Positions 23,760 through 35,038 of a stretch of 49,978 bases of DNA are shown one piece after another. Made by a program: the position numbers and the translations under genes. The stretch is from Clostridia bacterium. GTDB taxonomy: Bacteria > Bacillota > Peptococcia > DRI-13 > SM3-B62. The DNA is taken from contig JAHDQS010000008.1 of assembly GCA_018433675.1 (NCBI GenBank), forward strand, positions 1 to 49,978, given 5' to 3'. The first letter of the stretch is position 1; each line of letters begins with the position of its first letter. The notes below the pieces were generated by a model. It ran no database searches, was not told the DNA's origin, and was given only the letters and a program-made list of their open reading frames with translations.

Positions 23760-23803
23760 TTTTCTTCTCTCCATCCTACACTCCATAGTCTTCCTATTCC
23801 TTC

Positions 23804-25165
23804 TCAGTTAACCACCCGGACATAGTCCGCACTTGCCCAGCCTACTTTCCCATCCGGTAGCATCACGTTATACCATCCCGGTTGACTGTTTAAAACAGTG
23901 ACCTGGGTGCCTCTGGCTACTTTCGTCACAACAGCATATTGCAATCCGCTCCCGCTTCTGATATTCAAAACACCAGCAGTAGTGTTTCCAATTTTAACAC
24001 TTGGCAGGGCTCTGCTTGTTGGTTCTATTGGGTTTGTCGTTTTTGTTGACAAGGCAATTTTATCTTTACAGCCTGCTTTGTTGTCCAAGAGATTCCCTAG
24101 CCCGTAATAAAAACTCCCTTGAACCTCTTGATACTTTTGATTTATTTTCAATTGCAAATCAATTTCATGGGCAACCGTTTCCTTATAAACGCCATGTCCT
24201 ATGTATAATACTACATCGGTTCCTTTTACTTGCTCCGCCCACCATTGCACCAAGGTTTCATAGTCGGCAGCTTTATGCCCTGTTTCCCAGTAAATCTGCG
24301 GGACAACGTAATCAATCCATTCGTTTTTGATCCAGGTTTTGGTGTCGGCACATACGGTGTAATAGGATTGGTTGCCTGAGGTAGCTGAACCTGCAGGGTC
24401 GGAGGTGTTATTTTTCCAGATCCCTGTCGGGCTTATGCCAAACAAGACCTCCTTCTCAAGGTTTTTGATAGCCTCGCTCACCTGCCGGAGCATTTCGTTA
24501 ATGTGTTGCCTTCTATTGTTGGCGATAACTCCGTCCTGCCCTTCGCCCAACGGCAATGGGTAATTTGCGGGATAAAAATAATCATCGAAGTGAATGGCAT
24601 CAACGTCATAACTATTTACGATTTCCTGTACGGTTTCGACGATATGCTTCTTGACCGCTTGCAGCGCCGGATTATAGTACAGAGCATTATTATAACTGAT
24701 AAGCCAATTAGGATGCAGCCTGGCCGGATGATTCTCACTTAGGGCATTCAAGTCTGTTCCCGAGGTGGTCACCCGGTATGGGTTTAACCAGGCGTGGAAA
24801 GACATCCCTCTTTTATGGGCTTCTTCAATCATAAAGGCCAGAGGATCGTATCCCGGGTCTTTTCCTTGCGTCCCTGTCAAAACGTCGGACCAAGGATTAA
24901 TATTTGACTTATACAAGGCATCCGCCTTGGGCCGTACCTGAACCACTACTGTATTGATGCCAGTTGCCTGCAATCCATCCAGTTTTTCTATGTACTCGTT
25001 TTTCTGTGCGGTCACATCATCCTTTGTGCTTGGAAAGTCCAGGCCAAAAACCGTTGCCATCCACGCCGCCTGCACAATGTCCACGGAAGAATTCGCCCAA
25101 ACATTCGTGCTAAAACAAAGGGTCGCAAAAATCATTATAAACATTATATACAGTATCTTTTTCAA
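23804..25165 (-). CDS. Secreted GHL10-type glycoside hydrolase-like protein with SH3b domain
   Basis: 453 residues. Signal peptide at about 1-24 ending near VWA. A TIM-barrel domain of the GHL10 (DUF187, YngK-like) family follows at about 30-370: GINTVVVQVRPKADALY, FHAWLNPYRV, VDAIHFDDYFYP with likely catalytic acids, FGISPTGIWKN, WIDYVVPQIYWE. A bacterial SH3 domain (about 385-450: VLNIRSGSG, GWYNVMLPDGKVGWASADYV) probably binds cell wall. Family members are thought to act on wall or exopolysaccharide; one characterised group cleaves glycosaminoglycan-like or peptidoglycan glycans, but the substrate here is unknown. ATG start. Divergent from the RlpA-like gene. Confidence 0.88.
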   Translation of the reverse strand: MKKILYIMFIMIFATLCFSTNVWANSSVDIVQAAWMATVFGLDFPSTKDDVTAQKNEYIEKLDGLQATGINTVVVQVRPKADALYKSNINPWSDVLTGTQGKDPGYDPLAFMIEEAHKRGMSFHAWLNPYRVTTSGTDLNALSENHPARLHPNWLISYNNALYYNPALQAVKKHIVETVQEIVNSYDVDAIHFDDYFYPANYPLPLGEGQDGVIANNRRQHINEMLRQVSEAIKNLEKEVLFGISPTGIWKNNTSDPAGSATSGNQSYYTVCADTKTWIKNEWIDYVVPQIYWETGHKAADYETLVQWWAEQVKGTDVVLYIGHGVYKETVAHEIDLQLKINQKYQEVQGSFYYGLGNLLDNKAGCKDKIALSTKTTNPIEPTSRALPSVKIGNTTAGVLNIRSGSGLQYAVVTKVARGTQVTVLNSQPGWYNVMLPDGKVGWASADYVRVVN

Positions 25166-25287
25166 TGGCTTCTCCCCCCAAAAAAGAGATTGTCGTATCC
25201 TGTCGAGTTCTGTTATATATTACCACAGTAGAGAACCCGTGGCAACGTGCATAGAAACGGTAAAATATGGTTTGTCCCCAAAATAAC

Positions 25288-25317
25288 TTTACAGATCATC
25301 GCTGAATAAAGTATTAT
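25288..25317 (+). promoter_or_regulatory. Promoter of the RlpA-like gene
   Basis: TTTACA (25288-25293), 18-base spacer, TATTAT (25312-25317), 9 bases before the AAAGGAGGG ribosome site, giving a very short leader. Confidence 0.55.
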
Positions 25318-25339
25318 AGACTCCGAAAGGAGGGATATT

Positions 25340-26167
25340 ATCAGACAGTTCAGATTGCATTTACTTATTTTGCTCTGCTTACTCTTTCTGATACCCCAAC
25401 TTGTTTTGGCTGATGATGCAAATCCCGGTAACGAAACTATAGAAGGTGGGCTAATCAATCAGTTCACCGTAACAATCAACGGCCAGGCTACTGTTTTCAC
25501 GCAACCTGCTCTCCAAGAAAATGAAGAGGTGTTTTTCCCTCTCCGTGCCTTCTTACGGGCGTTCGGCGCAGAAATCGAATGGAATCCACATGAAGGTGCA
25601 ACGAGAATTGCAGCAGATGAAAAGGAATACCTGCTGAAAATGGACCTTGCCAATCTGAAGGTAATTGTTGATGAAAACACGACTTTTGCTTTGAAAATGA
25701 TTAATTCTCACGCATATATGCCCTTGGGCCTCATCCAAAAAATCATGAATTATGACTTTTCTTGGGTTGAGGAAGCACAAACCCTCCGGGCTGAAAGAAC
25801 ACCTGCTTCTTTCACTGTTTTCAGGGATTTGCGGGAAGCCCCTTCATATCGGGTAGTTGAAACGTTTACCGGAACAGCTTCTTGGTATGGAGGAAAATTC
25901 CACGGAAGAGAAACAAACAACGGCGAAATTTTTGATGAAAACGGCTTTACTGCCGCCCATAGGACCTTACCCTTTAATACATATTTAAGGGTCACTTTTC
26001 TGGATAGCGATAAAAGCACCGTAGTCCGCATCAACGACCGGGGTCCCCATGTGTCCGGCAGGATACTTGATTTATCCCGGGGAGCAGCCGAAGAGATCGG
26101 CCTTAGGCCACACGGGTTGGGAGAGGTAAAGGTCGAGGTTTTATCCGGCTATCAGCCGGAGTCGTAA
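25340..26167 (+). CDS. Secreted RlpA-like double-psi beta-barrel protein with a copper-amine-oxidase-N-like domain
   Basis: About 275 residues. N-terminal signal peptide, a stalk-like copper amine oxidase N domain (about 35-130: FTVTINGQATVF, VFFPLRAFLRAFGAEIEWN), then an RlpA double-psi barrel (TASWYGGKFHGRETNNGE, TAAHRTLPFNTYLRV, RINDRGPHVSGRILDLS with the conserved Asp). RlpA proteins are septal lytic transglycosylases or wall-binding proteins; here it is exported to the Gram-positive wall. The start is odd: AAAGGAGGG at 25326-25334 is followed at 6 bases by ATC (25340), not ATG. TTG at 25355 is the first standard start but is 20 bases away and would remove the arginines of the signal peptide. 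Confidence 0.8.
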   Translation: MRQFRLHLLILLCLLFLIPQLVLADDANPGNETIEGGLINQFTVTINGQATVFTQPALQENEEVFFPLRAFLRAFGAEIEWNPHEGATRIAADEKEYLLKMDLANLKVIVDENTTFALKMINSHAYMPLGLIQKIMNYDFSWVEEAQTLRAERTPASFTVFRDLREAPSYRVVETFTGTASWYGGKFHGRETNNGEIFDENGFTAAHRTLPFNTYLRVTFLDSDKSTVVRINDRGPHVSGRILDLSRGAAEEIGLRPHGLGEVKVEVLSGYQPES

Positions 26168-26183
26168 TTATGTAACCACAATG

Positions 26184-26221
26184 AAAAAGCCGCCAGTCTG
26201 CAAACAGATTGGCGGCTTTTT
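26184..26221 (+). terminator. Strong terminator after the RlpA-like gene
   Basis: AAAAAGCCGCCAGTCTG, loop CAAA, CAGATTGGCGGCTTTTT: a stem of 17 pairs with one G-U and A/T flanks that make it work on both strands. Confidence 0.92.
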
Positions 26222-26267
26222 CATGTTTTCTTACATTATATTTAATGTATTATTATCAGTATTATTA

Positions 26268-26296
26268 TTGATATGTGCTTTCTTTTTGGTTATAAT
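26268..26296 (+). promoter_or_regulatory. Promoter of the toxin-antitoxin operon
   Basis: TTGATA (26268-26273), 17-base spacer, perfect TATAAT (26291-26296); 44 bases before the antitoxin ATG. Confidence 0.75.
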
Positions 26297-26340
26297 AGTG
26301 ATATGAGTTGCTCAAAGTTATTTCAGAAAGGAGAATGAAA

Positions 26341-26643
26341 ATGAATGCAAAATTTGACCTCCGTCAAATGGTCCCTATCTCCGAACTTCATAGAAAACTG
26401 GGTGAGATTAGTGAAAAAGTTACGAAACAAGATGTTTTAGTATTAAAAAATAACAAACCCGAATTTATAATAGTTGCCCCTGATAAATATGAGCAATTTA
26501 TTAATGCCCTTGATATGATTGAACAACTTGATATTTATGATACTGTTAAAAAGCGTCGTGAAAACCCTTCTTTAAATGGATCTCAAATGATTGAAAAACT
26601 AAGAGCTTATGAACATCGGCAGACAAACCATGATATTCCATAA
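26341..26643 (+). CDS. Phd/YefM-family antitoxin
   Basis: 100 residues from ATG 26341, which lies 7 bases after AAAGGAG; the ATG six bases earlier is too close to that site. Phd/YefM pattern: MVPISELHRKLGEI, then DVLVLKNNKPEFIIVAPDKYEQF, and a charged helical C-terminal tail expected to fold on the toxin. Such proteins repress their own promoter as a dimer. A RelE-type toxin gene follows after 46 bases with its own ribosome site, giving a complete pair. The pair is next to a decayed transposase, suggesting acquisition or local rearrangement. Confidence 0.82.
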   Translation: MNAKFDLRQMVPISELHRKLGEISEKVTKQDVLVLKNNKPEFIIVAPDKYEQFINALDMIEQLDIYDTVKKRRENPSLNGSQMIEKLRAYEHRQTNHDIP

Positions 26644-26689
26644 TTTTTTTGGGCTGGTTTTACCGGTTTTAAAGGAGGTATAGCTCTTA

Positions 26690-27037
26690 ATGATCCAAAA
26701 AATCGACTTGATAACTCAAACATTTGAGCAATGCACCAGAATTGAATATGCGGAAGATGTTCTTGATGATCTTATGAAACTTGATGGAAGTATACTTAAG
26801 GAAGCCTGTACTACATTGAAAAAGATAAACAAAAACCCTTTTTGCGGCGAAGAACTTCATAATAAGTATGGTCTGAACTTACTAGGTTGTCGCAAAGAAT
26901 ATTTTAACGGTACACGAATGCGTATTGTGTGGGAACCTTACTCAGAACCTAATGAAAGTGAATATGTAGCCATTATATGGTCAATTGGGCCAAGAAAAAG
27001 TGCAGATGTATATAAACGTGCTAACAAAAGACGTTAA
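26690..27037 (+). CDS. RelE/ParE-superfamily toxin
   Basis: 115 residues. The core fits the RelE/ParE fold: YAEDVLDDLMKLDG (helices), LNLLGCRKEYFNGTRMRIVWEPY (central strands with basic residues) and AIIWSIGPRKSADVYKRANKR (last strand and C-terminal helix). RelE-type members cut mRNA on the ribosome; ParE-type members block gyrase; this one is closer in pattern to RelE/YoeB-like proteins but the activity cannot be told by eye. The N-terminus is longer than usual (about 20 residues). ATG with AAAGGAGG 11 bases upstream. Its stop touches the IS1634-like remnant. Confidence 0.75.
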   Translation: MIQKIDLITQTFEQCTRIEYAEDVLDDLMKLDGSILKEACTTLKKINKNPFCGEELHNKYGLNLLGCRKEYFNGTRMRIVWEPYSEPNESEYVAIIWSIGPRKSADVYKRANKRR

Positions 27038-27607
27038 CAGCTGGGGCTTGTTAGTGCAGCAACTGTTTTTTGGAGACGCATCAAGGCTGCCAGTATATTA
27101 CCGAAAGTTGCCAGGCAATATCCCTGATGTCAAAACGGTGCAAGACATGCTCGCCGACATTGATTTCTTAGAACTCAATAAAGTCAAACTTGTCATGGGC
27201 CTTGTCTTTCACAGCGAAGCAAATATAAATGAACTTTACCAAAGACTCTATAAGTTCCTAATCGCAGCTAAAACATCATTGGAATTGGTGAAAAAGAAAC
27301 TGGATAAAGTTCGAACTACCATGGTTTCACGACCGCATTACAACTCCAAGCACGGTATTTATTATGATTCATTGACAAAAGAAGGATATATCTCCATCTC
27401 TATTACAATGCCCCAAAGGCAACGGATGATAAAATCGCGTTTAATAAGCTCTTGGACATTCTAGAAGAAGAACTGGTTTCCAAGAAAAGAAAACCGGAGC
27501 ATGAAAAGCCCTATGCTAAATACTACAAACTAAGCGAAACACCTGTAAGAAGGCGTCTCTCTTGCTCCAAAGCAAGATGCGATATTGGAAGCCGAGGAAA
27601 ATTATAA
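27038..27607 (+). pseudogene. Decayed IS1634-family transposase fragment
   Basis: Translated pieces in two frames match the C-terminal half of IS1634-type DDE transposases. The first runs from about 27050 to 27410 (FFGDASRLPVYYRKLPG, KTVQDMLADIDFLELNKVKL, HSEANINELYQRLYKFL, VSRPHYNSKHG). The second runs from about 27419 to the TAA at 27605-27607 (ATDDKIAFNKLLD, EEELVSKKRKPEHEK, KYYKLSETPV). A frameshift separates them, the usual catalytic DRGFYS reads GLVFHS, and the N-terminal half is gone. It is inactive. No terminal inverted repeats were recognised. Confidence 0.8.
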
Positions 27608-27770
27608 TTAATTATTTTGCGTTAATTTCCAGATGTCAAGTTATTTGTGTGTATTCTGTTCTGGCAGAGCCGCGATTCCTGTATAAAGCAAACTCCTTTT
27701 TCGTTTAATATATGCGAATTACTTAATATTGATATATAGTCAAAATTCTTTCTATAAATATTTTCATCCC

Positions 27771-27814
27771 TTCGACATGTTTCGACATGTTTTTATTACC
27801 ATTCTTGTTATAAT
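27771..27814 (+). promoter_or_regulatory. Tandem Spo0A boxes ahead of a TATAAT promoter
   Basis: TTCGACATGT is repeated head to tail at 27771-27780 and 27781-27790. TTCGACA is the reverse complement of the Spo0A box TGTCGAA, so there are two perfect boxes exactly 10 bp apart, one helical turn, as for a bound Spo0A dimer. A perfect TATAAT lies at 27809-27814 with no good -35, and the downstream box lies where the -35 would be: the layout of Spo0A-activated sigma-A promoters. Bases 27608-27770 hold nothing else recognisable. Presumed target: the exported protein gene at 28020. Confidence 0.7.
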
Positions 27815-27886
27815 ATAGTATATATAAGACAACTCAAAATCAATTTGACATCCTTACAAGTTGCCAATTGCTCAAGAGTTGTACTT

Positions 27887-27945
27887 CTTCACAAAGATGT
27901 GAGTAATTCAAATTTATTCACATCAATACTGGGGTATTTGTGAAG
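27887..27945 (+). ncRNA. Structured 5' leader hairpin
   Basis: The arm at 27887-27902 (CTTCACAAAGATGTGA, unbroken) pairs with TCACATC (27918-27924) and TTTGTGAAG (27937-27945), leaving a 12-base bulge on the 3' side and a 15-base loop: 16 base pairs in all. It lies in the predicted leader downstream of the Spo0A-box promoter and 75 bases before the ATG. It does not match a riboswitch class I know. Orphan AAGGAGG at 27960-27967 follows with no long frame behind it. Confidence 0.45.
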
Positions 27946-28019
27946 ACATAGTAACGAAGGAAGGAGGATAACGATACCACATATTAAACCCCCTTAAAAA
28001 AAGATACGAGGTGTTTACA

Positions 28020-28688
28020 ATGAGAAAGTCATCAATACTTTGGATTACATTATTGGTCATTTGTTCATTTTTTATGTTTTCACTGTCTATTTCCGCTAAT
28101 GATTTAACAGATGATGTTAAAAAAGAACAGCGTTTTAGTATGGTTGCCAATGAAGAACAGTTGAAAACTCTTAATAGTTTGTACGGAACGGATATATCAT
28201 ATGGCGAGTTAATTGAAAAGGTATATCCAGAAGCATTAAAAGATATTCCTGATGAAATTTTAGCAGATATGTATAAAACAAAACAGCAATGGCCTAGTGA
28301 AGATATTGCAAACAATGACCTTTCTAAAAGCATATCACCAAATAAGGAACAAAAACTATTTATATGTGTTACACATGATTCTGATATCGATGCCAATAGT
28401 GTACAAATTGACTATAGTTCTGAGAGCGAGGTTGCTTTACCCCTTGGAGGTTATGACCTCCCATACATGTCAGTATTAACCGGATTAGAACGCGAAGGTG
28501 ATGGGGTGCTACGTTCAAAGCTTGAATATGGTTATTGGGTGTCTGATATTAGTGCTTCAAATTCTTATTACATACCCTCTTCAGGTAATTATAGGACTTT
28601 TGGCACTCATACCGGTCAATTCCCAGCAGGCTATAACCCTTCGTTTTACACGTTTAACACCAATACTTCATGGGAAGAAATAGAATAA
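28020..28688 (+). CDS. Exported protein of unknown function
   Basis: 222 residues from ATG 28020, 6 bases after GAGGTG. A signal peptide (about 1-26: RKSS, then a hydrophobic run ending FSLSISA) leads to a mature acidic protein of mixed content. The first half is helical (DEEQLKTLNSLYG-like region, IEKVYPEAL, DEILADMY). The second half is rich in Ser, Tyr and Gly (LPLGGYDLPYM, SYYIPSSGNYRTFG, GYNPSFYTFNTNTSW) and looks like beta structure. No lipobox, anchor or family recognised. AT-rich compared with its neighbours, next to an IS remnant, and behind Spo0A boxes, so it may be an acquired gene under sporulation or stationary-phase control. Confidence 0.7.
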   Translation: MRKSSILWITLLVICSFFMFSLSISANDLTDDVKKEQRFSMVANEEQLKTLNSLYGTDISYGELIEKVYPEALKDIPDEILADMYKTKQQWPSEDIANNDLSKSISPNKEQKLFICVTHDSDIDANSVQIDYSSESEVALPLGGYDLPYMSVLTGLEREGDGVLRSKLEYGYWVSDISASNSYYIPSSGNYRTFGTHTGQFPAGYNPSFYTFNTNTSWEEIE

Positions 28689-28756
28689 ATTTACATGCAT
28701 TGTTGCGATTACACAAATACGCTTTAATGATGGATATTAGTGACAACAATTGCCTT

Positions 28757-28801
28757 CATATACACTATTACCGGACGTTTTTTCCGGTAATAGTGTATAT
28801 G
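28757..28801. terminator. 18-bp perfect inverted repeat between two exported-protein genes
   Basis: CATATACACTATTACCGG (28757-28774), loop ACGTTTTTT, then its exact complement (28784-28801). The stem is perfect over 18 bp. The T-run is in the loop rather than after the stem, so it is not a textbook terminator; it may still stop or slow transcription between the gene ending at 28688 and the one starting at 28852, or protect an mRNA end. Confidence 0.55.
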
Positions 28802-28851
28802 GTTTTAGATAAATGGTTTTTAATCCCAGAAGACATTGTGAGGAGGGCAAC

Positions 28852-29439
28852 ATGGTAAGCAAAAAAAGCAAAGGCAATTTGCGTTTGTTGGCAATATTTT
28901 TTTCTGTTTTTTGTATATTAATAATCTTAGCCATGGCGGCAGCCCAAGAAACCGAGTTACAGGAGGTAAGTATAAATATCGGCACATCCATAGTTGATAA
29001 TCAGGTGATAGTCAAAGGAGAAGCTCTGTTGCCGGATGAAACGGTTATCAGACTGATGGCAATCCGAGAAATCACTTTCGAAAGAAATATGCAAGATACT
29101 ACAACCGGAGATGTTTTTTTAGCATCTGCAGATACTGAGGTCAACGATGGCAAGTTTGAAGCAACCTTCTCCTTGGATGACCATCAATGGTATGACGAAT
29201 TACTTGAAAACCCGGAATGTGAGCTTGTAGCTGCGGCAGACTATGTAAAAGTCAAGGCGACTTACATCCCGGAAAAACCTAAGTCATTGTTCACTCGGCT
29301 CCCTATACCTGCAGGTTTCTCGCTTGCCGTCAAGCTGCCTTTTTCGATAAAATTGCCTTTCTTGACAAAAGCCAAAAAGGTTCAGTATCTTCCGGTCATA
29401 AGTGAAACATTGGTTGAATATCCTTTTAATAATATTTGA
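28852..29439 (+). CDS. Exported or membrane-anchored protein of unknown function
   Basis: 195 residues from ATG 28852 with GGAGG 5 bases upstream. N-terminal basic stretch (SKKSKGN) and a hydrophobic helix (about 10-30, ending AMAAAQE) act as a signal peptide or anchor. The rest is a predicted beta domain (VSINIGTSIVDNQVIVKGEALLPDE, TFSLDDHQWYDELL) and a basic, hydrophobic C-terminal region with a repeated pattern (SLAVKLPFSIKLPFLTKAKK). No family recognised. It lies downstream of the 28020 gene and may share its transcript if the hairpin between them is leaky; a strong palindromic terminator follows. Confidence 0.65.
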   Translation: MVSKKSKGNLRLLAIFFSVFCILIILAMAAAQETELQEVSINIGTSIVDNQVIVKGEALLPDETVIRLMAIREITFERNMQDTTTGDVFLASADTEVNDGKFEATFSLDDHQWYDELLENPECELVAAADYVKVKATYIPEKPKSLFTRLPIPAGFSLAVKLPFSIKLPFLTKAKKVQYLPVISETLVEYPFNNI

Positions 29440-29457
29440 ACACACGACAAAACGCTC

Positions 29458-29490
29458 ATAACTGAGCAGGGATAATCCCTGCTCAGTTAT
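29458..29490. terminator. Bidirectional terminator between convergent genes
   Basis: A near-perfect 33-bp palindrome: two 16-base arms (29458-29473 and 29475-29490) around one A. It lies 18 bases after the plus-strand stop at 29439 and 4 bases after the minus-strand stop at 29495, ideal for stopping both. Confidence 0.75.
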
Positions 29491-29494
29491 GTCT

Positions 29495-30439
29495 TTAAAT
29501 TTCATTAACTTCTACCTCACCATCGCATAAAACAGCCAGCTTATTTTCGGCGTCTGCGGCTGTGAGTCTTCCCGTCGTACTACCTGTTACGGCACGATTT
29601 GTATTATCGCCGATATTCTCCTCCGTTTCAGGGCTGTCGGTTATCTCCCATTCTGTATTGCCTTTGAGCCGATGGGGATCATCGACAATAGCGAGAATTT
29701 CCATGTTTTTATCGGCAGGAATCGTGATTGCAGCCCGTGAGCACTTCACCAACCAATCACGTTCGATACCTTCACCCTGAATTGTCACGTAACTTCCCCC
29801 GTCTATCTCAACCTCTCTGTCTTGGGGGATAAAAACGGTATACTCATTTACCATGGCATAATACTTCATATCCCCCGCCGACCTTGTTGTATCGAAAGCA
29901 ATGTATAGGACATCCCCTGTGACATGGGTAGCCACCGTCAGGTCATTCATCAACTCACGAGCGGTTTCCGAAGAATCGGCCCTGGCATAACAAGCACCTA
30001 AAAGGCTCACGGTTTTATCCGTACAAGTCCTGATATCCAAGCTGATTTGATGGTCGGCAGCTATCACTATCTTATCTATCGAATCTTCCAGAATGAATTC
30101 TCTTTCCGGCAACTGCAGATTATAGCTCTGTGCGTTCACCATATTGCTTAATCCTTCTGCAATCCCGGTCTGAGTCAAAGCAAACAGGCCCGCGCCGACA
30201 AAGATTATGACCATGACCATGAAGATGCTAAAAACATCGTATGATATTTTACTCTTCTCCTCCTTTTGGAGAAAAGCATATAGCAGCACCTCCGCACCCA
30301 GTAAGAAAAAGACCAGCGGCCAACATTTCACGAGGAGTTCAAAGGCTTCAACTTTCTTAAACTGAGCATACAAAAGCAGTATGCCGGAAGACGCCAATAA
30401 AAACCCCATTGATAAAGTCCCTACTCTGCGCTGTCGCAT
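29495..30439 (-). CDS. Membrane protein with LiaF/toast-rack-like extracellular domain
   Basis: 314 residues. Three hydrophobic helices at the N-terminus (about 10-27, 35-56, 68-93) followed by a large extracytoplasmic beta-rich domain (about 100-280; repeated short strands such as LYIAFDTTRS, YYAMVNEYTVFIP, VEIDGGSYVTIQGEG) resembling the adhesin-like toast-rack/LiaF-type domains found with stress-sensing sigma or two-component systems. The C-terminal tail is acidic and Thr/Ser-rich. It is last gene of the sigma/anti-sigma operon, overlapping the preceding gene by 19 bases, so it is probably an envelope-stress effector or sensor. ATG behind GAGGAGG. Confidence 0.7.
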   Translation of the reverse strand: MRQRRVGTLSMGFLLASSGILLLYAQFKKVEAFELLVKCWPLVFFLLGAEVLLYAFLQKEEKSKISYDVFSIFMVMVIIFVGAGLFALTQTGIAEGLSNMVNAQSYNLQLPEREFILEDSIDKIVIAADHQISLDIRTCTDKTVSLLGACYARADSSETARELMNDLTVATHVTGDVLYIAFDTTRSAGDMKYYAMVNEYTVFIPQDREVEIDGGSYVTIQGEGIERDWLVKCSRAAITIPADKNMEILAIVDDPHRLKGNTEWEITDSPETEENIGDNTNRAVTGSTTGRLTAADAENKLAVLCDGEVEVNEI

Positions 30440-31233
30440 TGTTCAGCCTCCTCTTTTTCTTCAACCGAATCTTTCCCCTCAAGCATTTTTTCTCCTCTTA
30501 GAAGTTTTATCCCAAAGAAAATCAGGACTGCGGCAACCAATCCGGTTTGGAAAATGTTCCGGAGTTGGTAACTGATAAACGGAGATACTATTCTTTCTAA
30601 TACAATCAAACATCCCAGGGCAATCAGACCCCAACCGACCCACTGGGGATGCGTCCTTAAAAATGCAAAGAGAGGAAGCCCCTCATCCCAATCCGTCTTT
30701 CTGTCCTCTTCAACCCGATGGTAAGCATCAAACAGACTGTAAAACCAGATCACCGGCAGGACAAATAAAAACAAGCTCATGTTCAACCAACCCATTAAAA
30801 AGGCGGTAAAAGCAAACAAACTCATAAACTGTAGCCCTTGCTGCTGCAAGCCGAGGTACATATGTCCCGCTCCCGGAATGAAGGAAAAAGCAATGGTCAG
30901 CAGCTTGCGGTTGTCGTTACTTTTTGCAATCGAGGAAAAGTCGTTCCCATTCTCTCTCTCCCCGTTCTGCCCGCTTTCTTCGCTACCTTGTCTTTTGTCG
31001 GTCAAAAACATGGCATCCAACATGGCGATAAACCAAATAAGCGGAAGCACAAACAAAAGTATTATAAAATATTGATCCGACCCCGCTAAAAAGCACAGCC
31101 CCGTTACCGCGCAAATAGTGCCCATAAAAAGGCTGAAGAATATCAAAGCCCTGTCCCTCACTCCCACATAGGCATGGCTCAAACCCGGTATGAAAGAAAG
31201 GATAAAGGTGATAAGCTTACTTTTCTTCTTCAT
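30421..31233 (-). CDS. Polytopic membrane protein with duplicated FIPG/GH motif
   Basis: 270 residues from ATG 31233, 7 bases after GGGAGG. Two copies of a unit: FILSFIPGLSHAYVG...LPLIWFIAMLDA (about 8-80) and IAFSFIPGAGHMYLGLQQ...LPVIWFYSLFDAYH (about 117-175), each with two membrane helices, followed by two further helices and a charged C-terminal tail rich in Glu. The FIPG(x)GHxYxG pattern is common in small TM2-like membrane proteins of Firmicutes. Overlaps the anti-sigma gene by 17 bases and the next gene by 19, so translation is coupled. Function unknown; context suggests envelope homeostasis. Confidence 0.72.
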   Translation of the reverse strand: MKKKSKLITFILSFIPGLSHAYVGVRDRALIFFSLFMGTICAVTGLCFLAGSDQYFIILLFVLPLIWFIAMLDAMFLTDKRQGSEESGQNGERENGNDFSSIAKSNDNRKLLTIAFSFIPGAGHMYLGLQQQGLQFMSLFAFTAFLMGWLNMSLFLFVLPVIWFYSLFDAYHRVEEDRKTDWDEGLPLFAFLRTHPQWVGWGLIALGCLIVLERIVSPFISYQLRNIFQTGLVAAVLIFFGIKLLRGEKMLEGKDSVEEKEEAEQCDSAE

Positions 31234-31708
31234 TTCCAAACCTCCCATATACTTCATAATTGTTAATCATCTTCGCGACCTTATCCACAATCCTTCCCGG
31301 CCATTTATAATCCGTTTGAGAACTTGTTATGGATAGTTGGCTGTTGAGGGAAGCCAAAACCTGGGGTCCGGTATAAACAAGGGATCGAAACAATCCTCCG
31401 GCTACAAAAACGATTGTGATGGATGCTGCCGCAACATAATAGATGATGAGATTCTTTTTCTTCTCACTCATCCTCTGCTTAGACCTGGCGGCACTTTTTT
31501 CTTCCGCAAGGTCATGCATCACCCGCCCGGTAAAATCCTCCGGCAGCATTTTTCCCGCAGCGGCGATTTGTGTTTCATCAATCAGGGATAAGAAGGCTTC
31601 CTGGCACTCTTCACATTCATACAGGTGTTGTTCCAGCTGTTCACTTTTTTCTTTTTTTATCGATCCCTGTTTGTAAAGGAGCCATGCGGACCTGTCAAAA
31701 TGCTTCAT
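31217..31708 (-). CDS. Zinc-finger anti-sigma factor (membrane)
   Basis: 163 residues from ATG 31708. The cytoplasmic N-terminus has the ZAS motif His28-x3-Cys32-x2-Cys35 (HLYECEECQEAF), one membrane helix at about 86-106 (LIIYYVAAASITIVFVAGG), and an external C-terminal part of about 55 residues. Such proteins hold an ECF sigma factor inactive until a signal releases it. Its ATG overlaps the sigma gene stop (ATGA), with GGGAGGGAG inside the sigma gene as ribosome site, which links the amounts of both proteins. Confidence 0.88.
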   Translation of the reverse strand: MKHFDRSAWLLYKQGSIKKEKSEQLEQHLYECEECQEAFLSLIDETQIAAAGKMLPEDFTGRVMHDLAEEKSAARSKQRMSEKKKNLIIYYVAAASITIVFVAGGLFRSLVYTGPQVLASLNSQLSITSSQTDYKWPGRIVDKVAKMINNYEVYGRFGNEEEK

Positions 31709-32280
31709 AAGTCTCCCTCCCTCCATTTTTCCCTGAACAAATACCGTGCCCGATAAAGCCTTGACTCCACGGTTTTAGGGGTAATCCCTTCCTCTGCCGC
31801 GATTTCCCGATAACTCTTACCTTCAAAGTAGTGTTTCTCCACAACCCTTCTGTATATCTTGGGAAGTCTCTGACAAATAGTCCTGATCCTTTGCCTTTGT
31901 TCTTTTTGTAAGACAACCTCCTCCGGATCAGCCCTTTCTTGGTCTGCGTTTTCATAAACCACCGACAATGTTAAAAAATCCGGATATGCCATAAAGTGTC
32001 CGTCACGGGAATATTTCAGGTTCTTTCTGTGATTGTCTACAGCCTTCCTCACCGTAATTTTACCGATCCAGGCTTTCAACTTCTGAGAACGGAACTGGTG
32101 AAGGGAACGGTAGACCTGTAAAAAAACCTCTTGAGCAATATTCTCCGCTTCGAATTTGTCTTGACAAATATTTAAAATGATAGCGAAAACATAAGCCTTA
32201 TAGCGCTCGACAATGCAGGCAAAAGCATTGTCATCCCCTGCTAAGACTTGCTTTACCAAACGTTCATCATCATAGGTCAT
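31705..32280 (-). CDS. ECF-family RNA polymerase sigma factor
   Basis: 191 residues with sigma region 2 (DNAFACIVERYKAYVFAIILNI, AENIAQEVFLQVYRSLHQFR, the -10 binding part ending LKAWIGKI) and region 4 (LPKIYRRVVEKHYFEGKSYREIAAEEGITPKTVESRLYRAR, the -35 recognition helix), typical ECF length. ATG with GGGGGGAGG upstream. First gene of a four-gene operon with anti-sigma and two membrane proteins, so the regulon probably concerns the envelope. An autoregulated ECF promoter (AAC-type -35) was not recognised in the 140 bases upstream. Confidence 0.92.
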   Translation of the reverse strand: MTYDDERLVKQVLAGDDNAFACIVERYKAYVFAIILNICQDKFEAENIAQEVFLQVYRSLHQFRSQKLKAWIGKITVRKAVDNHRKNLKYSRDGHFMAYPDFLTLSVVYENADQERADPEEVVLQKEQRQRIRTICQRLPKIYRRVVEKHYFEGKSYREIAAEEGITPKTVESRLYRARYLFREKWREGDL

Positions 32281-32332
32281 ACCTCCCCCCCTTTCCCCTT
32301 TATAAAGACGTAAGATGAGGCCTTATACCCTG

Positions 32333-32386
32333 CAAAAATATTATTTTTCTTTGGAATATGCTATACATCCGAGCTCAAAAATATTA
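32333..32386. repeat. Two 11-bp direct repeats between sigma and metF genes
   Basis: CAAAAATATTA occurs at 32333-32343 and 32376-32386, 43 bp apart (about four helical turns), in the intergenic stretch between the divergent sigma operon and metF. Could be a paired regulator site; AT-rich sequence makes chance possible. Confidence 0.3.
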
Positions 32387-32423
32387 AAATTGACTTAATT
32401 TAGATTTCCTATGGAGGTGTTGT

Positions 32424-33317
32424 TTGACAATGTATATTAAAGATATCTTCGCTCAGCGCAAGCCGGTAATATCTTTCGAAATATTTCCCCCGAAAAAAGA
32501 TGGTTCAATTGAAGCCATTTATTCCACCTTGGACGGGTTAAAGGATTTAAAGCCGGATTACATCAGCGTCACCTATGGTGCCGGAGGCAGCACCAAGGAT
32601 CGGACGCTGGAGATCGCTTCATTGATTAAGCACAAATACGGGGTTGAATCTTTAGCCCACTTGACTTGTATTACGTCTACCAAAGAGGAAATTGGCACGA
32701 TGCTTTCCCAATTGGCAAACAACAACATTCACAACGTTTTGACTCTGCGAGGAGACCTGCCTCAGGAGGCGGATTTTGAATTTCCCAATCCCCTCCATTA
32801 TAACTATGCCTGCGACCTTGTCAAAGAGGTCAAAAGCCGAGGCGGTTTCTCCATCGGTGCCGCTTGTTATCCCGAAGGCCATCCCGAATGCGGCGATATG
32901 CAGAAGGACTTAGACCACCTGAAGACTAAGGTCGAGGCGGGAGCAGACTTTCTGATCACACAGCTCTTCTTTGACAACGATCTTTTCTACGATTTTCTGG
33001 ACAAAATCACAGCTATGAATATCAAGCTACCGGTTACCGTCGGCGTGATGCCTGCCCTCAATAAAAATCAAATCCACCGGATGACCTCTTTAACAGGGGC
33101 ATCTGTTCCTCCTAAACTGGGAAGAATGATGGATAAATATGAACACAGTCCGGAAGCTTTAAAGGAGGCCGGTATCGCCTTTGCCACAGAACAAATAATC
33201 GATTTGTTGTCCTGGGGAGTCGACGGCATCCACCTTTACACTATGAACAGACCGGAGGTTACAAAGGAAATAACTATGAACATCTCCACTATCAGGGATT
33301 ACTTGACCAGAAACTAA
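32424..33317 (+). CDS. metF: 5,10-methylenetetrahydrofolate reductase
   Basis: 297 residues, FAD-dependent TIM barrel that reduces methylene-THF to methyl-THF for methionine synthesis or, in acetogens, the Wood-Ljungdahl pathway. Motifs: VISFEIFPPKKDGS, YISVTYGAGGST, HLTCITSTKEEI, VLTLRGDLP, FSIGAACYPEGHPE, DFLITQLFFDN and the C-terminal WGVDGIHLYTMNRPE. TTG at 32424 lies 6 bases after GGAGG; ATG two codons later (12 bases) is an alternative. A MetV-type partner gene is not adjacent, so a role in acetogenesis cannot be claimed. No SAM riboswitch is visible upstream. Confidence 0.95.
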   Translation: MTMYIKDIFAQRKPVISFEIFPPKKDGSIEAIYSTLDGLKDLKPDYISVTYGAGGSTKDRTLEIASLIKHKYGVESLAHLTCITSTKEEIGTMLSQLANNNIHNVLTLRGDLPQEADFEFPNPLHYNYACDLVKEVKSRGGFSIGAACYPEGHPECGDMQKDLDHLKTKVEAGADFLITQLFFDNDLFYDFLDKITAMNIKLPVTVGVMPALNKNQIHRMTSLTGASVPPKLGRMMDKYEHSPEALKEAGIAFATEQIIDLLSWGVDGIHLYTMNRPEVTKEITMNISTIRDYLTRN

Positions 33318-33337
33318 ACCATGAGGAATGAAGTACA

Positions 33338-35038
33338 TTGGAACGACTGAAAACTAATCTTTTACGCATCGACAGAAAGGGATATAAAGCATATAAGGAC
33401 ATTCAAGGAACATACGAAGGAAGCGGCTTTCGCCTGCATATCGATTATGTACAGGGCGATCCTTTTGCCGCTCCTTCCCGTTTAAGGCTAGAGTTTAAGA
33501 GAGAAACGATTAAGTATGATGAAAGCTGTTTTCAACCCGCTCACCGCCGCACGGCCTTTGAAGATTTTTTGGCCCGAGAAGCAGCCCGAAGGCTGGGTTC
33601 TTTTCGTAATGATATCAGGGGTACCGGAAAAAGTGGTTTAATCAATATCGATTCCCCGGGACAGGAAATATTACGGCGCACTGCTGTTTTGGTCACACCG
33701 CAAAAGGTAGAATTCCGCCTTTCCGTAGGGCTGCCGGCTGCAGGCAGGACCGTCTTGGGCAAAGAGGCGGAACGCCTTTTGTGTCAATACGTTCCTGAGC
33801 TTATCACAAAGGCCGCTCTGGAATTTGACCGCACCAAATTATCCGCACATCTCAGTTTGAGCGACCAACAGGAGTTTATTAGGATTTTTTTATCAGAACA
33901 TGGTTATGTTTGCTTCGTCGCCAACGGCTCCATCCTGCCGAGAGAAAGCGGCATCAGTAACCGCCCGCTGAGAAGGCAGCAGGTAGTACCCTTTTCGTCC
34001 CCTCCCTCACTGGAAATAGAGATACCCCTTCCTCAGAGCAAACCCCTAAAAGGGATGGCCCTCCCCCAGGGAGTCAGTCTCATAGTCGGCGGCGGCTACC
34101 ACGGCAAGAGCACCCTTCTCAAAGCCATTGAACGCGGCGTTTACAACCACATTGCCGGGGATGGCAGAGAATACGTTATCACCGACCGCACCGCCTATAA
34201 AATCAGGGCTGAAGACGGTCGCCGCATAGAGAAGGTAAACATTTCCCCCTTCATCAATAACCTGCCCTTCGGCAAGGATACCGAACGCTTCACCTCCGAC
34301 GATGCCAGCGGCAGCACTTCCCAAGCAGCAAACATCATCGAAGGCTTGGAAATAGGCAGTAAGCTTCTTTTGATCGACGAGGATACCAGCGCCACTAATT
34401 TCATGATCCGTGACGCCCGCATGCAGGAGCTGGTCAGCAAAAACAAAGAGCCTATCACGCCTTTTGTGGATAAGGCGAGACAGCTCTACACCGGCTACGG
34501 GGTTTCAACTATTATAGTGATGGGGGGTTCCGGTGACTATTTCGACGTTGCCGACCGCATTATTATGATGGATGAATACCGACCGCGGGAAGTAACAGAA
34601 AAGGCCAGAGAAATAAGCAAAAGTTTGGCCCACCTGCGGCAGCAGGAGGGCGGACACAGCTTCGGCTCAATTACGCCGAGAATCATCCGGCCCCAAAGCT
34701 TCAACGCCTTCCGGGGCAGAAAAGAAAAGGTCGACTGCAAGGGGTTGCACACCATAATTTACGGAGTCGATACAATCGATCTCTCTTCAGTGCAGCAGCT
34801 CGTCAATTCCAGCCAGACACGGGCCATCGCGGAAATGATCCATTATATCGCCAATAACCTGGCCGACGGTTCTACCGAACTATCGGCTATTGTTGAAAGG
34901 CTGTATAATGAAATCTCCCAACAAGGCCTGGATGTGATTTCCCCTTACTTCGGTAAACATCCCGGCGATTTGGCCTTGCCTCGTACTATTGAGTTAGCCG
35001 CAGCCCTTAACCGTCTGCGTACCTTACAGGTGAAATAA
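33338..35038 (+). CDS. ABC-class P-loop ATPase, COG3044 (MRB1590-like)
   Basis: 566 residues. An N-terminal domain of about 200 residues (GSGFRLHIDYVQGDPFAAPSR region, VLVTPQKVEFRLSVGLP) precedes a single ABC-type ATPase domain: Walker A GGGYHGKST near 250, the motif TSDDASGSTSQA in the position of an ABC signature, Walker B KLLLIDEDTSA near 345, and VMGGSGDYFDVADRIIMMD. There are no membrane helices, so it is not a transporter. The family includes trypanosome MRB1590, which binds RNA; bacterial function is unknown. Start TTG 33338 with GAGGA about 10 bases upstream, 20 bases after metF, and stop 7 bases from convergent topB. Confidence 0.85.
   Translation: MERLKTNLLRIDRKGYKAYKDIQGTYEGSGFRLHIDYVQGDPFAAPSRLRLEFKRETIKYDESCFQPAHRRTAFEDFLAREAARRLGSFRNDIRGTGKSGLINIDSPGQEILRRTAVLVTPQKVEFRLSVGLPAAGRTVLGKEAERLLCQYVPELITKAALEFDRTKLSAHLSLSDQQEFIRIFLSEHGYVCFVANGSILPRESGISNRPLRRQQVVPFSSPPSLEIEIPLPQSKPLKGMALPQGVSLIVGGGYHGKSTLLKAIERGVYNHIAGDGREYVITDRTAYKIRAEDGRRIEKVNISPFINNLPFGKDTERFTSDDASGSTSQAANIIEGLEIGSKLLLIDEDTSATNFMIRDARMQELVSKNKEPITPFVDKARQLYTGYGVSTIIVMGGSGDYFDVADRIIMMDEYRPREVTEKAREISKSLAHLRQQEGGHSFGSITPRIIRPQSFNAFRGRKEKVDCKGLHTIIYGVDTIDLSSVQQLVNSSQTRAIAEMIHYIANNLADGSTELSAIVERLYNEISQQGLDVISPYFGKHPGDLALPRTIELAAALNRLRTLQVK

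What the first reader, a model, noticed from the sequence alone, without database searches (positions are those of the whole stretch)
27771..27814. Two perfect Spo0A boxes 10 bp apart driving unknown exported proteins
Tandem TTCGACATGT with box over the -35 region and TATAAT downstream is a textbook Spo0A-activated layout, yet the gene it controls is an exported protein without known family. A direct Spo0A target of unknown function is uncommon.
Basis: partly seen in the sequence, partly recalled or inferred. Interest (0 to 1): 0.65.

Follow-up and report, generated by a model that had tools for sequence, protein, structure and literature searches.

The report
Sporulation-switch promoter on acquired secreted-protein gene
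A small gene island, absent from the nearest relative, carries a promoter built like those switched on by the sporulation regulator Spo0A, in front of an exported protein of unknown role that also has relatives in methane-cycling archaea.

Summary
TTCGACA lies at 27771-27777 and 27781-27787, followed by TGTTATAAT (-10 at 27809-27814, 21 bp after box 2). This is the only exact tandem in the 3.0-Mb genome, and 0 of 20,000 shuffles of the intergenic region gave one. The Spo0A reading is well supported by sequence. The genome encodes Spo0A with a Bacillus-like DNA-binding domain, and its own spoIIGA promoter is TGCGACA-N21-TATAAT. Across 60 related genomes, TTCGACA-Nx-TATAAT peaks sharply at x=21 (24 hits against 5.5 per other spacing). 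Those 24 include two spoIIGA genes and one spoIIE. I read it as a spoIIG-type promoter, activated by Spo0A~P with sigma-A polymerase. The gene (28020-28688) encodes an exported protein with a helical N-domain and an Ig-like beta-sandwich, in no Pfam or NCBIfam family. Relatives are rare (7 of 398 phylum genomes, query included) but occur in Methanophagales and other archaea, beside agr-like operons, and fused to a BlaR1-type sensor. The gene lies in a 3.3-kb AT-rich island (26222-29494) missing from the same-genus genome. Control of the second gene is not shown. Spo0A binding and protein function are untested. This is a new member of a known promoter kind.

The parts
27771..27777 (+). 0A box 1 (TTCGACA), centre about -47 from the inferred start
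   Evidence: exact match; only tandem of its kind in the genome
27781..27787 (+). 0A box 2 (TTCGACA), in the place of the -35 element
   Evidence: exact match, 21 bp from -10; same geometry as own spoIIGA
27806..27814 (+). extended -10, TGTTATAAT
   Evidence: spacing peak at 21 bp over 60 genomes
27821..28019 (+). inferred 5' leader of about 200 nt with two hairpins
   Evidence: fold z-score -1.86, not strong; no Rfam family at gathering score
28020..28688 (+). gene 1: exported 222-aa protein, helical N-domain plus beta-sandwich
   Evidence: homologues; AlphaFold model pLDDT 77
28756..28802 (+). 19-bp perfect hairpin with short T-rich tail, possible terminator after gene 1
28852..29439 (+). 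gene 2: second exported or anchored protein, 195 aa; control by the 0A boxes not shown
26222..29494 (.). island absent from the same-genus genome G001 (GC 36% against 43-47% in the flanks), holding the promoter and both genes
   Evidence: blastn: window 23796-26221 and 29495-35034 are joined with 8 bp between in G001; GC
26308..27037 (+). Phd/YefM-type antitoxin and a small partner gene (RelE-like by position, no Pfam hit) inside the island
   Evidence: PF02604 6e-08 for the antitoxin
26985..27600 (+). transposase remnant (DDE) upstream of the promoter
   Evidence: PF01609 0.0025, below cut-off

Best explanation
The site is a spoIIG-type promoter: sigma-A RNA polymerase holds the extended -10, and phosphorylated Spo0A, bound as a tandem dimer to the two 0A boxes (centres about -47 and -37), replaces the missing -35 contact and switches transcription on. 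Because both boxes are perfect, it should respond at lower Spo0A~P than spoIIGA, i.e. early in the transition to stationary phase (inference). It drives gene 1, an exported protein with a helical domain and an Ig-like beta-sandwich that probably acts at or outside the cell surface. The promoter and gene arrived together, or were assembled, on a 3.3-kb AT-rich island. Shown: the sequence features, the geometry shared with spoIIGA/spoIIE, the spacing peak, presence of Spo0A, and the island's absence from the same-genus genome. Inferred: binding, activation, threshold, direction of the gain, and the extracellular role.
For: Exact tandem, unique in the genome; 0 of 20,000 shuffles. Own spoIIGA: TGCGACA-N21-TATAAT. 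TTCGACA-N13..29-TATAAT over 60 genomes: 24 of 112 hits at N21, other spacings mean 5.5, Poisson 5e-9 by hits, 3e-4 if each genome counts once. N21 sites precede SpoIIGA in G039 and G044 (PF03419, 8e-70 and 2e-67) and SpoIIE in G056 (1.9e-104). In Spo0A-encoding genomes N21 has 22 hits against 4.5 expected; in 13 Spo0A-less genomes 2 against 1.0. Own Spo0A matches 1FC3 and 1LQ1 (6e-49, 7e-47), including the SRVERAIRHAIE helix. C. difficile Spo0A also recognises TGTCGAA, and a consensus box predicts binding (PMC3485338). G187: TTCGACA-N21-TATAAT precedes the agr-like operon next to which the homologue lies. Island.
Against: No binding or transcription data. The contrast between Spo0A-bearing and Spo0A-less genomes is not significant (Fisher P 0.20). 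Tandem boxes are not enriched in the own genome when 2 mismatches are allowed (24 against 38 in the control). Boxes are not kept at the loci of G248, G363 or G006, so Spo0A control is not a property of the protein family. The extended -10 could give some Spo0A-independent transcription.
Confidence: 0.76

Rival explanations
1. The boxes bind Spo0A but repress: the promoter is active in growth through its extended -10 and is shut off at sporulation onset, as at abrB.
For: Tandem 0A boxes 10 bp apart are the abrB arrangement (own knowledge, structure 1LQ1). TGTTATAAT can support some activator-free transcription (sequence).
Against: Box 2 sits exactly where spoIIGA promoters have it, at 21 bp, in the same orientation. 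No -35 at normal spacing. No box downstream of the -10, where repressor sites usually lie.
Confidence: 0.1
2. The direct repeat is the site of another regulator (a response regulator that also binds tandem repeats), and Spo0A is not involved.
For: Tandem or triple TTCGACA occurs before unrelated genes such as a response-regulator gene in G350. The Spo0A-presence contrast is not significant. Several N21 sites precede genes with no known sporulation link.
Against: spoIIGA and spoIIE, established Spo0A targets, are behind sites of the same class. The core is the exact 0A box.
Confidence: 0.1
3. Chance: a 10-bp duplication happened to create the tandem next to an ordinary -10 in AT-rich island DNA.
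For: The repeat is exact over 10 bp, as a recent local duplication would be; the island is 36% GC.
Against: A duplication explains two boxes from one, but not the 21-bp placement before an extended consensus -10 (0 of 20,000 shuffles).
Confidence: 0.04

Closest known systems
spoIIG-type Spo0A-activated sigma-A promoter (spoIIGA, spoIIE of Bacillus and Clostridia)
   Same: 0A box in the -35 place, over-long spacer to TATAAT (21 bp here and in own spoIIGA; about 22 bp in B. subtilis spoIIG by own knowledge), same orientation, tandem 10-bp register.
   Different: Both boxes are perfect, whereas own spoIIGA has one 6-of-7 box and a poor upstream one; the controlled gene is not a sporulation gene but an exported protein on an island.
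abrB operator of B. subtilis (tandem 0A boxes, structure 1LQ1)
   Same: Two 0A boxes as 10-bp direct repeat (own knowledge).
   Different: Opposite role expected from the placement relative to the -10.
Secreted RCC1-repeat proteins of the same genome and of G006 with the same promoter class (L030, L103)
   Same: Own copy: TTCGACA GGT TATGACA-N21-TATACT. G006 copy: TTCGACA-N21-TATAAT. Exported products.
   Different: Unrelated protein; found in two families of the order, so a more conserved target.
agr-like operon of the Clostridiales bacterium DTU086 (G187, LFTO01000071)
   Same: A homologue of gene 1 lies just downstream; the operon promoter is TTCGACA-N21-TATAAT.
   Different: Single box; quorum-sensing genes lie between promoter and homologue.

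Membership tests
spoIIG-type Spo0A-activated promoter | Match to the 0A box TGTCGAA / TTCGACA | tested here: met
   two perfect copies
spoIIG-type Spo0A-activated promoter | Box in the -35 place with over-long spacer to a sigma-A -10 | tested here: met
   21 bp to TATAAT, no normal -35; peak at 21 bp in relatives
spoIIG-type Spo0A-activated promoter | Same geometry at spoIIGA or spoIIE of the same lineage | tested here: met
   own spoIIGA; G039, G044 spoIIGA and G056 spoIIE. Own spoIIE does not show it
spoIIG-type Spo0A-activated promoter | Organism has Spo0A with conserved DNA-binding domain | tested here: met
spoIIG-type Spo0A-activated promoter | Promoter class absent or at chance where Spo0A is absent | tested here: inconclusive
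   2 against 1.0 expected in 13 Spo0A-less genomes; Fisher P 0.20
spoIIG-type Spo0A-activated promoter | Binding by Spo0A~P and Spo0A-dependent transcription | not testable with these tools
   needs EMSA, footprint, reporter
Pfam / NCBIfam families for gene 1 product | Score above a curated cut-off | tested here: not met
   best Pfam 17.2 bits against 27; best NCBIfam 13.6 against 343
Ig-like beta-sandwich proteins of known function | Clear structural match standing above background | tested here: inconclusive
   Foldseek best E 1.3e-3; VIA-align best Z 7.4, no Z of 8 or more

The most novel reading that the evidence does not exclude
A mobile island brought its own high-affinity Spo0A switch, so that an acquired surface or secreted effector of a bacteria-archaea protein family fires at the sporulation decision, for example to act on neighbouring cells or methane-cycling partners. 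In other lineages the same protein family is wired to quorum sensing or BlaR1-type sensors instead.
Probability: 0.2. Interest if true: 0.62.

Novelty: new member of a known kind. Interest (0 to 1): 0.42.

Why it matters
It gives a predicted direct Spo0A target outside the core sporulation genes in a little-studied lineage. It also gives a simple sequence signature (TTCGACA-N21-TATAAT) by which such targets can be listed in genomes that cannot be grown or engineered. If the exported protein acts between cells, the case would show how acquired genes get wired into the sporulation decision. Its family is shared with anaerobic methane-cycling archaea and is attached to several different sensing systems, which makes it a candidate extracellular signalling or surface module.

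Tried and rejected
1. Close relatives of gene 1 in genome contigs with the single protein: none; the alignment found nine loci. Plasmids and phages: none. 2. Rfam for the leader: only sub-threshold chance hits; fold only mildly more stable than shuffles; dropped as a riboswitch claim. 3. Near-matches (up to 2 mismatches) of the tandem in the own genome: no excess over control, so degenerate tandems are uninformative there. 4. Own spoIIE promoter: only reverse-oriented near boxes, not the N21 type. 5. Fold comparison: common beta-sandwich, no function; the N-terminal helical part was hardly tested. 7. Older spoIIG papers are not held, so the 22-bp B. subtilis spacing is cited from own knowledge only.

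Full report
Observation. The two boxes, their 10-bp register and the downstream -10 are as stated. One TTCGACA is expected about five times per window, so the boxes matter only as a pair in a promoter context. The pair is the only exact one in the 3.0-Mb genome. Dinucleotide shuffles of the 555-bp intergenic region gave no tandem and no box-N20-22-TATAAT in 20,000 trials. The hexamer at a normal 17-bp spacing is CATGTT, so the promoter lacks a usual -35.

Is it Spo0A? The genome encodes one Spo0A. Its C-terminal domain matches the solved Bacillus-type domains (1FC3 6e-49, 1LQ1 7e-47) with the helix SRVERAIRHAIE unchanged. TGTCGAA boxes also lie in the spo0A upstream region. The own spoIIGA gene has TGCGACA-N21-TATAAT just upstream, the same geometry as box 2 here. 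To test whether 21 bp is a real class, TTCGACA-N13..29-TATAAT was searched in 60 related genomes. Of 112 hits, 24 have N21, against a mean of 5.5 for each other spacing: Poisson 5e-9 by hits, and 3e-4 counting each genome once (four further copies of one repeated G040 site at N20 were counted once). The N21 sites precede SpoIIGA in two genomes and SpoIIE in a third, which are established Spo0A targets. In genomes with Spo0A the N21 class has 22 hits against 4.5 expected; in 13 genomes without it, 2 against 1.0. The contrast is in the right direction but not significant (Fisher P 0.20). A tandem pattern (TTCGACANNNTTNGACA, N20-22, TANNNT) gave 25 matches in 398 phylum genomes against 6 for the control pattern.

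A class of exported targets. The own genome has a second gene with the layout TTCGACA GGT TATGACA-N21-TATACT, before a secreted RCC1-repeat protein. In G006, of another family of the order, a secreted RCC1-repeat gene has TTCGACA-N21-TATAAT. Other N21 sites precede SLH, cytochrome and other exported products. So exported proteins behind this promoter class are not a peculiarity of this window.

The protein. Gene 1 (28020-28688) has an N-terminal hydrophobic stretch ending in SISA-ND, read by eye as a signal peptide, and no family match. Relatives are rare: 7 of 398 phylum genomes, the query included. A profile scan also found it in archaeal MAGs: Methanophagales, Methanosarcinales, Methanomicrobiales, 34-39% identity, over most of the protein in three of the four. 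The Methanophagales (L126) and Methanosarcinales (L123) contigs carry archaeal-type housekeeping genes by eye, so they are not obviously misbinned. The contexts differ. It lies after an agr-like operon in G187, whose operon promoter is itself TTCGACA-N21-TATAAT. It lies near an agr-like cluster, with an SLH domain, in G363, and near an ECF sigma gene in G248. It lies after a BlaI/BlaR1-type pair in G006 and is fused to a BlaR1-type M56 protein in G254. The conserved part is a helical domain (LYGTxIxxGELxxKVxPEAL) followed in most members by a beta-sandwich. Structure comparison shows only a common Ig-like arrangement.

An island. In G001, of the same genus, window 23796-26221 and 29495-35034 are about 90-93% identical and lie 8 bp apart. 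The 3.27 kb between them (a Phd/YefM antitoxin gene with partner, a transposase remnant, the promoter, gene 1 and gene 2) is absent there, and its GC is 36% against 43-47% in the flanks. With two genomes the direction is not proved; low GC, the transposase remnant and rarity favour gain. The promoter therefore lies inside the island with its gene.

Mechanism. Sigma-A polymerase on the extended -10, with Spo0A~P on the tandem boxes acting in the -35 place, is the best-supported reading (about 0.76). Two perfect boxes, against the imperfect ones at spoIIGA, suggest response at lower Spo0A~P (inference from the known high- and low-threshold Spo0A genes of B. subtilis, own knowledge). Gene 2 is separated by a 19-bp perfect hairpin with a short T-rich tail, so its control is open. 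What the protein does outside the cell is not known; a surface or intercellular role is a guess from export, the beta-sandwich and the linkage to sensing systems.

Verdict. The promoter is a new member of a known kind. The added value is the 21-bp signature, the island, and the cross-domain exported family.

Noticed in passing
G000:C23:6708 (L030:1501-1600; L120:6719-8983): Second predicted Spo0A-type promoter in the own genome, TTCGACA GGT TATGACA-N21-TATACT, before a secreted RCC1-repeat protein; G006 (L103) has the same kind of gene behind TTCGACA-N21-TATAAT.
   Followed up: yes
L012:5558-5591: An agr-like quorum-sensing operon in G187 begins with TTCGACA-N21-TATAAT, which would put agr under Spo0A; a homologue of gene 1 follows the operon.
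   Followed up: partly
L122, L123, L124, L126: Homologues of gene 1 in Methanophagales and other archaeal MAGs; in L122 and L123 beside a DUF6345-type protein, and in L123 and L126 downstream of an ArsR-like regulator.
   Followed up: partly
L016:8373-9605: The N-domain of the family is fused to the C-terminus of a BlaR1-type M56 membrane protease in G254, and the gene follows such a protease in G006.
   Followed up: partly
window 26222-29494: 3.3-kb AT-rich island with Phd/YefM antitoxin gene and transposase remnant; G001 has the empty site with 8 bp between the flanks.
   Followed up: yes
G055, six N21 sites (L113-L118): One genome holds six TTCGACA-N21-TATAAT sites, before sigma-54-type regulators, CpaE-like genes and an exported protein: a possible large Spo0A regulon.
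   Followed up: no
L054-L056, L058: In genus g154 a triple TTCGACA at 10-bp steps (one copy imperfect in L055) precedes a secreted coiled-coil protein.
   Followed up: no
G000:C22:31713-31746 (L102): Another own-genome TTCGACA-N21-TATAAT with no long ORF within 450 bp downstream; possibly a small RNA or short gene.
   Followed up: no
window 27821-28019: About 200-nt leader with a long imperfect hairpin (CUUCUUCACAAA...UUUGUGAAG); no Rfam family.
   Followed up: partly
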